Below, piece after piece: positions 23,015 through 28,858 of a DNA stretch of 32,133 nt. Source of the DNA: Clostridia bacterium (GTDB taxonomy: Bacteria > Bacillota > Clostridia > Clostridiales > Clostridiaceae); contig RZYZ01000003.1 in NCBI GenBank assembly GCA_009930125.1, positions 1 through 32,133 of the forward strand. Reading direction: 5' to 3'. Below the pieces are notes generated by a model. It worked only from the letters and a program-made list of their open reading frames with translations. It did no database searches and had not been told where the DNA came from. Each line of letters begins with the position of its first letter. The stretch's first letter is position 1. The translations under genes were made by a program, and so were the position numbers.

Positions 23015-26000
23015 TCAGATTCTGGCTGTGAAGTTTCCGTTTTCCTCTTTCGTTATGGGTTCATCGGATGTCTTCTGAAGGATCTGTCGCACTTTCTCTT
23101 CCAGCTTTTCGTTTCCTCTGGCATAACCGAAGAGTTTCAACACTTCAGTCACCAGACTCTCCTCCGGAATGGAAACCTGCTTCTCCACCACATCCTGTAT
23201 GGCCAGCTGAATTTCTTCCAGAGGAAGATCCTCCGCCTCTCTTTTCATTTCTCTGGTGGCATAGCGATAGAAGCTGACACCGGAGTCCTTGTCCTCTCCA
23301 TAGATGAAATACTGACCTTCTTTTTCCACAATCTCATATCCGAGACCCGATAAAATGGTGTCGATGGTGTCTACACTTTTCTGGGTGTATCTTACACCAA
23401 AGGCTTTCAGTGTCTGTCTGTACAGTAGATTCAAAGTGATGGGCGCCTCCACATGAATGATTTTCATCAGTGTATCCTTGATGTCTCTGGTGTTCTTTGG
23501 CATCCTGAACTCTTCTGCGCTCATGGGTCTGTGATCAAACTCCGCCTGCACATAAGCTCTTGAAATCCCCTCTTCCGCACGGGAATCTTCCGGCTTCTCC
23601 TCCTGAGAAATGAGATTTCCGATGCCGAGGTCCTGGCTCTTGGCTTTATTTTCAGTGGTCATTGCACCACTGCGGATCTCTCTGACTTTCTCGAGAATTC
23701 TCTCCACTTCCTGCTGGCTGTTTTCCATCCAGTCCATGGGATAGACTTTCAGAAGATTCCATCCAAGTCCTTCCAGTACCATCTCCTGCAGAATGTCCCG
23801 ATCCCTTGCGCTTTTGGCATTTTTGTAGGATTCGCCCTGGCAGAGTATGCCCAGAAGATATTCCTCGGGCTTCTCTTCGTTCACCACGGCCAGATCCACC
23901 TTATATTTGGATGCACCGACGCGGATGTCCACCTGAAGACCCTTTGCCAAGAGCTCTTTACGGATGGCATCGGCAAGGGTGTCCTTCTGCACCCGGGACT
24001 TCACCTCTGCCAGGTCCACAGGCTGGCTGCCTCTTCGCGCATAGTCCAGAAATCCTTTCAGGTCATGAATGCCCTGGGAAGAGGTTCTGGACGTGTCCAT
24101 CATTTCCGGACGGATGCTGGTGAAGATCTTCATCTCCTTTTTGGATCTTGTGATGGCCACATTCAGGCGTTTCCATCCGTTTTCTCTGTTGAGCGGTCCG
24201 AAATTCAGCGTGATCTTTCCTTCTTCATCCGGTCCATACCCGATGCTGAACAGAATCACGTCCCGCTCATCTCCCTGGACATTCTCCAGATTCTTCACGA
24301 AAACCGGCTCGTCCATGGCAAGGATTCTTTCTTCGATTTCAGGATAATTCTTCAGCGCTTCAGAGAGGGTATCCTCAATCATGTCTTTCTGCGCCATGCT
24401 GAAGGTGACGACGCCAATGGAATCTTCTCTTCTTTTCTCATCCTGCAGGCGCATCATGATTTCAGCAACCACCGCTTCCGCTTCCTTGGGATTCGCTCTG
24501 GTGCCGCCTCGTCCATAGGTGGCCTCCACATACTGATAGCTCACCTTTGATTTCAGTTCTCCCGGTGAGGGATAGGTGTACAGGTCATTGTCATAGTAGG
24601 TTCTGTTGCTGTAGGCGATGAGGCTTTCATGACGACTTCTGTAGTGCCAGAGCAGTGAGGTCTCCGGCATGGATAAGGCCAGCGCATCCTCCAGAATATT
24701 ATCCAGATCCTCCATGACGCCATCTTCCTCTTCCACTTTGCCGCTGGCCGTACTGAAGAACGTGGTCGGAGGGAGCTGCTTGGGATCGCCTACGATGACT
24801 ACTTCCTTTCCTCTGGCCATGGCACCCACGGATTCCGCCGTCGGCATCTGGGAAGCCTCGTCGAAGATGACCAGATCAAAGTATTCCCTGGAGGTGCCCA
24901 GATACTGGGCCACAGACAGAGGGCTCATGAGCATGCAGGGCGTGATTCGCGGAAGAAGGTTCGGCAGTCTGTCAAAGAGGTTTCTCAGGGTCATGCCCCG
25001 ACCGCCGCTTCGTATGGCTCTCTGCAGGATGCCCACCTCCGAGGAGCCATTGGCTTCCTTCATCATATTCGGCACTCTGGAAGCCAGTACATGCTGGATT
25101 TCTCTCCTGGCCAGATTCTCGTACTTTTCCGTGATTTCCCTGAAATAGGCGATTTTTTCCTTGAACTGTCTGCCTGTCACCGCCTGAAGAAGAGGCTCCT
25201 TCGACAGGATATACAGGAAGGCTCCCTTATAAAGGCTCTTCATCAGGGCTTCTTCCGCATCCTTTCCGGGCAGGGTTCCTTCTTCATAAGCTTGAATCAT
25301 AGGCATCAGCTCTTTTTTCTCCGCCTTCTCGATGAGTCTGTTATAGGTTGTCCACTCTCTCAGAGCCTCCAGATTGTATCCATAGGTCGTAAGCCTGTCG
25401 AAGAACCGATAGGCCCAGTTCCCTTCCAGACCCGGAAGGGTCTCCACATCCAGTGAAAGCTTCTCTTTCAGGGCGGTGTAGTCCTTCTCGAAGGTTGAAT
25501 AGGCCTCTAGAAACTGCTGGGATGTTTCCTGGCGAATCTCTTTGAAGACCATGAGCGCTTTCTCTGCACCCTTCAGATCAAGCTGACGGAAGAGGCTTCT
25601 GAAGTTCTCTAGCTCCGCCATGATGCCTCTCAGATGCACGGATGTCTTCTCCTCCAACGAACTGATAAACGGCCTGTCAGAAACACCAAGACCACTCAGG
25701 ATCTCGTCAAGGGACGATTCCAGTTTTCTCTTCTCTTCCATCTGGTTAAGGAGAGGAAGGGTCTCTTCTTCCGTTACTTCCTTTCCTCTTCTCTGAGCGG
25801 ACAGGACTCTTGTGACTTTCTTCCGGGTCATGCCTCTCAGCAGGATGAACTTCTCCTCCGCTTTCAGGAACGTGTCTCTCAGCTCCTTTTCATTCAGAAG
25901 AAACAGGCTGGGTTCATATTCTGTCAGAAGCTTTTCTTCCAGCTGCTCCTTTTTCTCCGCCAGAAGAGCGGCGTTTTCCAGAAGATCCAGCCGGTAGCCG

Positions 26001-28789
26001 TCTTCATGGAAGAGCAGTTCTCTGGAAAGCGATGTCTCCTCCAGTTTCTTCAGAAGACCATGGACTGCATCCAGCTTCCTCTTCTCGCTCAGATCTTTCA
26101 GGGAGAGTTCATTCATGAGCGCATCGGTGATGCTGCCCAGTTTTTCCGCTTTCTCCTTCAGTTGATCGATTTCCTTCTCCACCTGGCTCTTCAGATCGAA
26201 GGTGTAGTCTGTGATGCCGATGCCTTTCAGCGGTGCATCCGCATATTCTCCAGTGGTTTCCGAGATGGATCGGAGTTCTCTGCCCAGGAGGAAAAGCTCC
26301 TCCATCTGGGCTCTGGTCAGGGCTTCATACCGGATATCCAGTCCTTCGATCTCTGGAGCGGATTCCAGATATTCCAGTTTACCCATGAGTTCATAGGCGG
26401 ACAGGTCAAAACCATAGGATCTATAGAGCGCTCCGACCACTTCATTGAGTTCTCCTCGGAGCTCCTTCAGCTTCAGGGCTTCCCCTTTAAAATCCACCTC
26501 ACCTCTGGAGACCATTTTGGTGGTCTCTTCCAGCTTCTTCAGTATATGGGTCTTCTTGCTTTTATTGGAATGCACCTCCAGTGAAAAGTGACCCAGCCCC
26601 AGGCCTTCCAGCCTTCTCTGAACCACAGACAGCGCCGCCATTTTCTCCGCCACGAAAAGAACCCTCTTCCCCTGGTAGAGCGCATTGGCGATGATGGTGG
26701 TGATGGTCTGGGATTTCCCTGTGCCGGGTGGTCCGTGGAGGACGAAGGATTTTCCTTTCACCGCCGCATCCACGGCCTGAAGCTGACTGGCATCGGTGCT
26801 TACCGGTAGTAGAATCTCTGAAGGGGAGATCACTTCATCGAGCATGATCTGGTCCTTCAGAATCTTTTCCGGCTCAAAGGTCAGCTTTCCCTCCATGAGC
26901 GAACGGATCACCTTGTTTCTCTTCAGGTCCTCCCCGTGATTTCTGATGTCGTTCCACATGATGAATCTGGAGAAGGAAAAGAGTCCCAGATGCACTTCGT
27001 CCAGCACATCCCATCGCTTCTGACTGAGCACGGCGTTTCTGACTATGCTCAGGACCTTCACCACATCCACACCCTTCTCATCCAGCGGCAGCTCGGAAAG
27101 ACCCTGTATCTCCAGATCGAAATCCTGCTTCAGCTTTTCCAGAAGCGTGATGTTCACCAGTGTATCCTCTTCCCTTGCTGAGATGGTGTAGGCGTTTCTG
27201 CCCACTTTCTTCTTCATCTCCACCGGGATCAGAAGCAGCGGTGCATAGCGTTCCTTGGTAGATCGGCTGTTTTCATACCATTTGAGCACGCCCATGGTGA
27301 GAAAGAGACTGTTTGCCCCCGATTCCTCCAGATGCGTTCTGGCATCTCTATACATCCTTGTGAGCTTCTTCTCTAGAGTCTCCTCCTCCATCAGTGTGCG
27401 AAGCTTTCTCTGCTGGAACTCTCCTTCCAGAAGCGGTCCGTAGGCGGTGAAATAGTCCGCGGCTTTAGACAGGCTTTCCCCTTCTCTTCTTTCATGATCG
27501 GACACTCTCGAGAGCACCTGAAATTCCCTGCCGTCATAGAGCACATCTTCCAGAGCACGCAGATCCTTCACCAGAAGCTCGATGCCTTTTCTGCCCGGCA
27601 CGTAGTTCAGAAGACTGTTCCGAAGACTGAGATCCAGAAGCTTTCTTTCCCAGAGGGTTTTTCGATCCAGCACCTTCTCGGGCTTTTCTTCCACCAGCTT
27701 CACCACTTCCTTCAGCTCAGGAAGCTCATTTGTCCTCTCCTCCATATTCTGCTCTTTCCTCTGCACATACTGGCCATTCACAAGAAGCCTCTCCGGCAGT
27801 GGGCGGATTCCTCCGACTCTTGCTCTTTTCACATCGATGGACAGGAGAAAGTTCTCTTCATTTTTCAGGTGGCTTAGGGCATGCTCTTCCGACTGGGTGA
27901 AGGAAAGATTCTGTCCGCTTCGGATGTCTGTGGTTTCCAGAACACCGATGATGGACATGCCTTCCGCAGAACGCTTCGTCAGGGAGGTGGCATCATACTC
28001 CACCGTATCCTGAAAGAACTCCTCTTCCTGCCAGTATCCAAGGAAGGAATGGCCTTTGATGAGAACGATGATCGGATAGATGGAAACGGCCTCCAGGCAG
28101 GAAGCAAAGAGCAGTGTAAGGTCCAGACAGGTGCCCATCTTCTTCTCCAGCACCTCACTGGAAAGACGCACTCTCTGTCCTCTGGCCACAAAGGATGCAG
28201 GCGGACCGATGTAGGTGATCTCCTGATTCTTCAGTGCCATGAAGATGGCGTGAACCTGTTCCCGGACACGGTTGATGTCTCCCTTCTGATACCCTTCAAA
28301 GGACGGGTCCTTTCCCGATTCCTTCAGAATATGGGAGGCTTCCACCAGTATGTTGTCGATGGCGGGATGATTAGGCGTCACGAATGCCGTGAGCACTTCA
28401 GGCATGGTATCCATCCCCTGCCATTCATTGTAGGAAAGGACATGGACCTCCCTGGTCTCCTCCATGAGCACTGTCCCTTCTTCAGAGATTTCGATCTTCA
28501 TCAGCGCGGTCATGGCTTCCGTTAAATGAAACAGATCCTCCGGATTCAGCTCCACGGTAATCTGTCCCAGGTCCACCTCCAGACCGGAAGGCAGAACATC
28601 CAGTGTCCTTGTGAAGGGCTTTGCGATGTTCTCCTGAAAAGAGACGCTGATTTTAAGCTGTTTCAGGTCTCTATCTGACTGATTGGTCACTGTGATTTTG
28701 CGCAGGAACGGAATTCCGTTCAGGACCATGGCGTAATTCAGGGTGTCGGCGTAATCCACTTGTATGCTTAAGTGCTTTGTCACTTCCAT
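23015..28789 (-). CDS. Giant multidomain protein: transglutaminase-like, DUF4011, SF1 (UPF1-like) helicase, Vsr/MTES_1575-like nuclease, DUF3320
   Basis: ~1924 aa; GTCLDLTLLFAS...GHSFLGYW (transglutaminase-like), Walker A VLHGPPGTGKSQT, Walker B VIFDEASQMPTAES, VGDPKQLPP, NVQGDERDVILFSIGYG, LNVAITRSKKEMKI; YKVDLAV...GILCQGESYKNAKSARDRDILQ..LEGLGWNLLKVYPMDWMEN; C-terminal DUF3320-like. Start at 28789 has RBS AAGGAGG. Confidence 0.9.
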   Translation of the reverse strand: MEVTKHLSIQVDYADTLNYAMVLNGIPFLRKITVTNQSDRDLKQLKISVSFQENIAKPFTRTLDVLPSGLEVDLGQITVELNPEDLFHLTEAMTALMKIEISEEGTVLMEETREVHVLSYNEWQGMDTMPEVLTAFVTPNHPAIDNILVEASHILKESGKDPSFEGYQKGDINRVREQVHAIFMALKNQEITYIGPPASFVARGQRVRLSSEVLEKKMGTCLDLTLLFASCLEAVSIYPIIVLIKGHSFLGYWQEEEFFQDTVEYDATSLTKRSAEGMSIIGVLETTDIRSGQNLSFTQSEEHALSHLKNEENFLLSIDVKRARVGGIRPLPERLLVNGQYVQRKEQNMEERTNELPELKEVVKLVEEKPEKVLDRKTLWERKLLDLSLRNSLLNYVPGRKGIELLVKDLRALEDVLYDGREFQVLSRVSDHERREGESLSKAADYFTAYGPLLEGEFQQRKLRTLMEEETLEKKLTRMYRDARTHLEESGANSLFLTMGVLKWYENSRSTKERYAPLLLIPVEMKKKVGRNAYTISAREEDTLVNITLLEKLKQDFDLEIQGLSELPLDEKGVDVVKVLSIVRNAVLSQKRWDVLDEVHLGLFSFSRFIMWNDIRNHGEDLKRNKVIRSLMEGKLTFEPEKILKDQIMLDEVISPSEILLPVSTDASQLQAVDAAVKGKSFVLHGPPGTGKSQTITTIIANALYQGKRVLFVAEKMAALSVVQRRLEGLGLGHFSLEVHSNKSKKTHILKKLEETTKMVSRGEVDFKGEALKLKELRGELNEVVGALYRSYGFDLSAYELMGKLEYLESAPEIEGLDIRYEALTRAQMEELFLLGRELRSISETTGEYADAPLKGIGITDYTFDLKSQVEKEIDQLKEKAEKLGSITDALMNELSLKDLSEKRKLDAVHGLLKKLEETSLSRELLFHEDGYRLDLLENAALLAEKKEQLEEKLLTEYEPSLFLLNEKELRDTFLKAEEKFILLRGMTRKKVTRVLSAQRRGKEVTEEETLPLLNQMEEKRKLESSLDEILSGLGVSDRPFISSLEEKTSVHLRGIMAELENFRSLFRQLDLKGAEKALMVFKEIRQETSQQFLEAYSTFEKDYTALKEKLSLDVETLPGLEGNWAYRFFDRLTTYGYNLEALREWTTYNRLIEKAEKKELMPMIQAYEEGTLPGKDAEEALMKSLYKGAFLYILSKEPLLQAVTGRQFKEKIAYFREITEKYENLARREIQHVLASRVPNMMKEANGSSEVGILQRAIRSGGRGMTLRNLFDRLPNLLPRITPCMLMSPLSVAQYLGTSREYFDLVIFDEASQMPTAESVGAMARGKEVVIVGDPKQLPPTTFFSTASGKVEEEDGVMEDLDNILEDALALSMPETSLLWHYRSRHESLIAYSNRTYYDNDLYTYPSPGELKSKVSYQYVEATYGRGGTRANPKEAEAVVAEIMMRLQDEKRREDSIGVVTFSMAQKDMIEDTLSEALKNYPEIEERILAMDEPVFVKNLENVQGDERDVILFSIGYGPDEEGKITLNFGPLNRENGWKRLNVAITRSKKEMKIFTSIRPEMMDTSRTSSQGIHDLKGFLDYARRGSQPVDLAEVKSRVQKDTLADAIRKELLAKGLQVDIRVGASKYKVDLAVVNEEKPEEYLLGILCQGESYKNAKSARDRDILQEMVLEGLGWNLLKVYPMDWMENSQQEVERILEKVREIRSGAMTTENKAKSQDLGIGNLISQEEKPEDSRAEEGISRAYVQAEFDHRPMSAEEFRMPKNTRDIKDTLMKIIHVEAPITLNLLYRQTLKAFGVRYTQKSVDTIDTILSGLGYEIVEKEGQYFIYGEDKDSGVSFYRYATREMKREAEDLPLEEIQLAIQDVVEKQVSIPEESLVTEVLKLFGYARGNEKLEEKVRQILQKTSDEPITKEENGNFTARI

Positions 28790-28858
28790 ATTTGCCTCCT
28801 TAGACTCTTCTCCTTTCATTCTAGTACATTATCGGAATATTTTGTAGATATTTCCGTT

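What the first reader, a model, noticed from the sequence alone, without database searches (positions are those of the whole stretch)
23015..28789. Giant single-gene transglutaminase-like/DUF4011/SF1-helicase/Vsr-like/DUF3320 protein, possible defence effector
A 5.8-kb monocistronic gene combines an N-terminal Ig-like region, a Cys-His-Asp transglutaminase-like segment (GTCLDLTLL, GHSFLGYW, YDATSL), a full SF1 helicase, a Vsr-like nuclease fold and DUF3320. Helicase-nuclease fusions of this type are commonly suspected or shown to be antiviral. The role of the transglutaminase-like domain in such proteins is not clear to me. No partner gene or neighbouring defence gene is visible here, so it may act alone.
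Basis: partly seen in the sequence, partly recalled or inferred. Interest (0 to 1): 0.62.

Follow-up and report, generated by a model that had tools for sequence, protein, structure and literature searches.

The report
ProA anti-phage helicase, nuclease site lost
A giant bacterial protein that belongs to a recently named anti-phage family (ProA) combines a protease-like domain, a DNA/RNA helicase and a nuclease fold, and in this bacterium and its branch of the family the nuclease has lost key active-site residues while the protease-like triad and the helicase motor are kept.

Summary
The gene is real: minus strand, 23015-28789, start codon at 28789 with an AGGAGG site, 1924 aa, single-gene. 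Its architecture is broadly as described. It is a full-length, above-cutoff match to NCBIfam NF058533 'anti-phage protein ProA' (1940 bits, cutoff 1500) and matches PADLOC candidate PDC-S37, so the family is already named as anti-phage.

First, the gene is not island DNA here: it is single-copy and in the same gene order in all 4 genomes held for the genus (ProA identities 93, 52 and 52%), under purifying selection. Second, the Vsr-like (EDxHD) nuclease has lost its active-site pattern: E1616 is A, E1659 is L, D1661 is Q, H1666 is K; only D1642 and D1673 remain. Across 85 relatives this follows a deep split. One side keeps E1659 and usually H1666; the mainly Bacillota/Bacteroidota side (53 rows) has E1659 in none. 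The transglutaminase-like triad and helicase Walker residues are kept on both sides.

Most likely this is a chromosomally fixed ProA that uses the helicase as sensor/motor and the transglutaminase-like domain as effector, with the nuclease fold reduced to nucleic-acid binding. The defence role is by homology; the mechanism is inference.

The parts
23015..28789 (-). ProA-family gene, 1924 aa (1934 aa if counted from the upstream ATG at 28819)
28795..28800 (-). Shine-Dalgarno AGGAGG of the ATG at 28789
   Evidence: sequence
28430..28771 (-). N-terminal Ig-like beta-sandwich (residues about 17-130, numbering from the ATG at 28819)
   Evidence: AlphaFold model and Foldseek
27755..28417 (-). transglutaminase-like domain (residues about 135-355); triad C231 (28127-28129), H257 (28049-28051), D276 (27992-27994)
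27131..27643 (-). DUF4011 (residues 393-563)
   Evidence: Pfam 8.3e-45
24110..26800 (-). SF1 helicase core with a long insert (residues 674-1570); Walker A GPPGTGKS at 26711-26734, Walker B DEAS at 24851-24862
23687..23968 (-). MTES_1575/Vsr-like (EDxHD) nuclease fold, residues 1618-1711; degenerate motif ILCQGESYK at 23822-23848 in place of the canonical (V/I)ECDGATYH
23393..23509 (-). DUF3320 (residues 1771-1809), followed by a C-terminal helical/winged-helix-like region
   Evidence: Pfam 24.2 bits (cutoff 25); model

Best explanation
This is a chromosomally fixed member of the single-gene ProA anti-phage family. Shown here: family membership by profile, domain order, synteny in the genus, purifying selection, conserved transglutaminase-like triad and helicase residues, and a degenerate nuclease site. 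Inferred: the SF1 helicase engages abnormal nucleic acid made during infection (free ends, replication intermediates). ATP-driven movement then releases or activates the N-terminal transglutaminase-like cysteine hydrolase/acyltransferase, which modifies or cleaves a protein target. The Vsr-like fold helps grip nucleic acid but does not cut it in this branch. In the other branch (Pseudomonadota, Verrucomicrobiota, Planctomycetota and others) the nuclease probably does cut.
For: NF058533 'anti-phage protein ProA' 1940 bits over 1500, covering 1-1903 of 1903; PDC-S37 1177 bits. Above cutoff in all 4 genomes of the genus and in one other genus. Walker A Lys and Walker B Glu in 86 of 87 aligned sequences; triad C 78, H 79, D/E 80 of 87. 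Nuclease E1659: 31 of 31 in one group, 0 of 54 in the rest; H1666: 26 of 31 in the first and never without E1659. On a tree from helicase columns only, the no-E label needs 2 changes against a mean of 25 for shuffled labels, and 53 no-E rows form one side of a branch with support 100. dN/dS between the two closest copies is 0.126 overall, 0.171 in the transglutaminase-like domain and 0.068 in the nuclease-like domain, so the degenerate domain is still constrained. Relatives lie on plasmids, many called conjugative.
Against: No phage assay for this branch in anything I could read; the paper behind NCBI's ProA name was not found. The locus holds no other defence gene, and neighbours of relatives in the no-E branch rarely match defence models. 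Genus-wide fixation would also fit a housekeeping repair or recombination role. A nuclease can survive motif changes: Vsr itself lacks the Glu of the ExK motif (general knowledge). One relative in another genus, G014, has lost the transglutaminase triad too (D, T, D), yet keeps the helicase residues.
Confidence: 0.45

Rival explanations
1. It is a ProA defence protein whose nuclease is still active through a rearranged site (D1642 and D1673 plus substitutes), so it works like the other branch: the helicase tracks invading DNA and the nuclease cuts it.
For: D1642 and D1673-R1674 are nearly invariant in both branches; the nuclease-like domain has low dN/dS, 0.068.
Against: E1616, E1659, D1661 and H1666 are all replaced here. 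Even within the genus the residues at 1659/1661/1666 differ (L-Q-K/R against Q-F-Q), as expected of an unused site.
Confidence: 0.17
2. It is a chromosomal genome-maintenance protein (repair, recombination or transcription-replication conflict) and defence is incidental or absent in this genus.
For: Single-copy and syntenic in 4 of 4 genomes, purifying selection, no defence neighbours. A large DUF4011 gene (relation to ProA not tested) is a core flank present in every P. aeruginosa isolate (PMC10250203). In rhizobial plasmids ProA is followed by a gene annotated as DNA repair exonuclease.
Against: Most genera of the same family lack a ProA above the cutoff (5 of 58 genomes have one), so it is not essential housekeeping; homologues are on plasmids; NCBI curates the family as anti-phage.
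Confidence: 0.28
3. It is a decaying former defence gene that now does little.
For: Loss of nuclease residues here, and of the triad in G014.
Against: Uninterrupted frames in all four genomes of the genus, dN/dS 0.115-0.126, helicase core dN/dS 0.028.
Confidence: 0.05
4. The transglutaminase-like domain is a non-enzymatic binding module and the helicase alone acts, for example by displacing or blocking phage replication proteins.
For: The triad is lost in about a tenth of relatives, in several independent places (8 changes on the tree).
Against: The triad is kept in about 90% of relatives at 30-40% identity to this protein.
Confidence: 0.05

Closest known systems
ProA anti-phage protein (NCBIfam NF058533); possibly the 'Prometheus' system reported by DefenseFinder (link by name only, not verified)
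   Same: Full-length profile match well above the curated cutoff, same length and domain order.
   Different: This copy is chromosomally fixed in its genus and its nuclease site is degenerate. I could not read which member was tested, so whether the tested one has an intact nuclease is unknown.
PDC-S37 (PADLOC phage defence candidate)
   Same: 1177 bits over residues 389-1924.
   Different: The model match starts at DUF4011 and does not cover the N-terminal Ig and transglutaminase-like part.
Hhe (NCBIfam NF042953, DUF4011 anti-phage protein)
   Same: Shares DUF4011, helicase and nuclease-like region (784 bits).
   Different: Far below Hhe's cutoff of 2000, so not Hhe.
Vsr / EDxHD endonucleases (I-Bth0305I, PDB 3r3p; NGO0050, PDB 3hrl)
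   Same: Fold of the C-terminal nuclease-like domain (TM-score by target length 0.72 and 0.75; Foldseek E-values are weak, 0.12 and 0.07).
   Different: Active-site E, E/D and H replaced here.
RAP-domain proteins (9i05, 9g6k chains)
   Same: Weak profile similarity to the nuclease-like domain (E 0.0015); RAP domains are Vsr-like folds thought to bind RNA without catalysis (general knowledge).
   Different: Eukaryotic organelle proteins, no helicase.

Membership tests
ProA anti-phage protein (NF058533) | score above the curated equivalog cutoff over the whole model | tested here: met
   1940.3 bits against 1500, model positions 1-1903 of 1903
ProA anti-phage protein (NF058533) | domain order Ig, transglutaminase-like, DUF4011, SF1 helicase, Vsr-like fold, DUF3320 | tested here: met
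   (DUF3320 marginal at 24.2 bits)
ProA anti-phage protein (NF058533) | protects cells from phage | not testable with these tools
   no assay possible; source paper not held
active Vsr/EDxHD nuclease | E, D, H and D of the EDxHD pattern plus motif E1659/D1661 | tested here: not met
   only D1642 and D1673 of six positions remain
active transglutaminase-like enzyme | Cys, His and Asp at the fold's triad positions | tested here: met
   C231 at the start of a helix, H257 at the start of the second following strand, D276 after it; activity itself not tested
Hhe | score above its cutoff | tested here: not met
   784 bits against 2000
mobile defence-island gene in this genus | variable presence or location among close relatives | tested here: not met
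   same neighbours in 4 of 4 genomes; only four genomes are held

The most novel reading that the evidence does not exclude
In the Bacillota/Bacteroidota half of the ProA family the defence does not run through DNA cutting at all: a helicase-gated transglutaminase-like protease or acyltransferase is the effector, and the former nuclease is a nucleic-acid sensor.
Probability: 0.3. Interest if true: 0.65.

Novelty: new variant of a known kind. Interest (0 to 1): 0.4.

Why it matters
ProA is widespread across many phyla and carries three possible enzymes in one chain. Natural loss of the nuclease site in one half of the family, with the transglutaminase-like triad and helicase kept, points to which part matters and gives matched natural controls for experiments. 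It also shows that a protein filed as anti-phage can be a fixed, vertically inherited chromosomal gene in one genus and plasmid cargo in other bacteria.

Tried and rejected
Literature for ProA, PDC-S37 and DUF4011 with DUF3320: nothing held describes ProA. 'Prometheus' appears in surveys without description, so its identity with ProA is only a guess from the name. Empty-site test outside the genus: no other genus showed the left and right flanking genes side by side, so acquisition at this site could not be dated. Defence-neighbourhood test: few PADLOC hits among about 290 neighbours of relatives, and I ran no random-gene control, so it decides nothing; the neighbours came from a simple longest-ORF rule. 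Foldseek of the whole C-terminal model gave mainly winged-helix hits such as cullins; only the 3hrl and 3r3p matches concern the nuclease-like part. Viral structure library: short, partial, mostly unnamed matches of no use.

Full report
Observation. One long ORF fills the interval on the minus strand. Residue numbers below count from 28819. Pfam finds DUF4011, the SF1 helicase halves, the MTES_1575 nuclease fold, and DUF3320 just under its cutoff. The flanking genes on both sides run on the opposite strand, so there is no operon partner. The neighbours are ordinary clostridial chromosomal genes: SCIFF peptide and its maturase, an ornithine/lysine/arginine decarboxylase family protein, a DUF4349 protein, an M20 peptidase, and further off KDPG aldolase, sugar kinases, MurG and pyruvate:ferredoxin oxidoreductase. 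The GC content of the gene resembles that of its near neighbours.

Family. The protein is a full-length match to NCBIfam equivalog NF058533, 'anti-phage protein ProA', 1940 bits against a cutoff of 1500, and matches PADLOC PDC-S37. It is not Hhe, whose cutoff it misses by far. So the family is already recorded as anti-phage. I found no readable paper on it; 'Prometheus', a DefenseFinder system in Pseudomonas and rumen surveys, may be the same thing, but that rests on the name.

Core or island. All four genomes of the genus carry exactly one copy, between DUF4349/M20 and the decarboxylase/SCIFF-maturase genes. ProA identities to the window are 93, 52 and 52%, in step with the adjacent neighbours (decarboxylase 90, 51, 52; DUF4349 90, 56, 55). 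dN/dS between the two closest copies is 0.126 and for the other pair 0.115. Among 58 related genomes only five exceed the family cutoff: the four of this genus and one of another genus, G014. The G014 protein is identical, in the aligned columns, to that of Clostridiaceae bacterium JG1575 (L067); it lies near murG, the beta-CASP gene and pyruvate:ferredoxin oxidoreductase, genes that also lie in this window. Thus the gene is fixed and vertically inherited here, on a sample of four. The same family is on plasmids of Klebsiella, Acinetobacter, Rhizobium and others, and one unannotated 11-kb sequence deposited as a bacteriophage carries a copy.

N-terminal domains. AlphaFold on residues 1-400 with 70 sequences gives pLDDT 91. 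Foldseek ranks transglutaminase 2 and factor XIII chains and a Parabacteroides putative protease (3kd4) among the top hits; many of the matches concern the Ig-like sandwich only. A profile of the alignment also picks up 3kd4 weakly (E 0.32) over the stretch with the Cys-containing helix. Pfam Transglut_core matches 30 of the 70 aligned sequences, DUF553 24. C231 starts a helix, H257 starts a strand, D276 follows: the usual Cys-His-Asp order. The triad is kept in about 90% of 87 sequences.

Nuclease. The C-terminal model contains a fold similar to 3hrl and to the homing endonuclease I-Bth0305I (3r3p), which I know as EDxHD/Vsr-like (the EDxHD/Vsr class is named in PMC12350094). In Klebsiella, rhizobia and Pseudomonas the motif reads (V/I)ECDGATYH, and the first helix carries an E. 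In this protein it reads ILCQGESYK and the first-helix E is A. Over the family, comparing the 31 sequences with E1659 against the other 54: position 1616 is E in 28 of 31 against 9 of 54; 1661 is D in 31 of 31 against 44 of 54; 1666 is H in 26 of 31, and H1666 never occurs without E1659; D1642 and D1673 are nearly invariant in both. A tree from helicase columns alone puts 53 no-E rows on one side of a branch with support 100; the one other no-E row is a Methanospirillum copy. The window's genus and G014 are among the minority that lost D1661 too. The tree is unrooted, so loss rather than gain is an inference from the canonical motif being shared with a DUF4011 relative outside ProA (G007, IECDG); it is also a FastTree tree with some long branches.

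Mechanism. Shown: conserved helicase and triad residues, degenerate nuclease residues, constraint on the whole chain. Inferred: helicase as sensor and motor, transglutaminase-like domain as effector, nuclease fold as nucleic-acid grip. Weak profile similarity to RAP-domain proteins, which are Vsr-like folds without catalysis (general knowledge), offers a precedent. Against: no assay, no defence neighbours, and G014 has lost the triad as well.

Verdict.

Noticed in passing
L022:15867-16997; L034:15821-16981; L035:15780-16859: In Bacteroides the gene convergent with ProA is annotated as a reverse transcriptase; Dysgonomonas and Apibacter have a similar-sized gene at the same place, and two of the neighbours scanned match retron-type reverse transcriptase models. 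Which two was not checked.
   Followed up: partly
L024:7971-17702, L025:7989-16630: In rhizobial plasmids ProA is followed directly by a gene annotated as DNA repair exonuclease and (L024) a large 'DNA-binding protein', which could be an SbcD/SbcC-like pair; a possible multi-gene version of ProA.
   Followed up: no
L020:1769-7441 (same as L067): ProA of Clostridiaceae bacterium JG1575 has lost the transglutaminase triad (D, T, D) and the nuclease motif, but keeps the Walker A and B residues.
   Followed up: partly
L021 (G007:C12), ORF of about 2400 aa: A DUF4011-type helicase protein of 2398 aa with a different N-terminal part and an intact IECDG nuclease motif.
   Followed up: no
window:10715-12286: Beta-CASP metallo-beta-lactamase that scores 426 bits on the type VII CRISPR Cas14 model (cutoff 800) but lies in a housekeeping setting next to murG; probably an ordinary ribonuclease.
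   Followed up: no
window:19712-21496: SCIFF six-cysteine ranthipeptide and its radical SAM maturase, intact.
   Followed up: no
L027 (MT836269.1): An 11-kb unannotated sequence deposited as 'Bacteriophage sp.' carries a ProA gene close to that of Bacteroides; possibly bacterial DNA mislabelled as phage.
   Followed up: no
L022 (NZ_OY725931.1): A 45-kb 'plasmid' of Bacteroides finegoldii that holds rpsA, ftsK, trxB and glutamine synthetase; looks like a chromosomal fragment.
   Followed up: no
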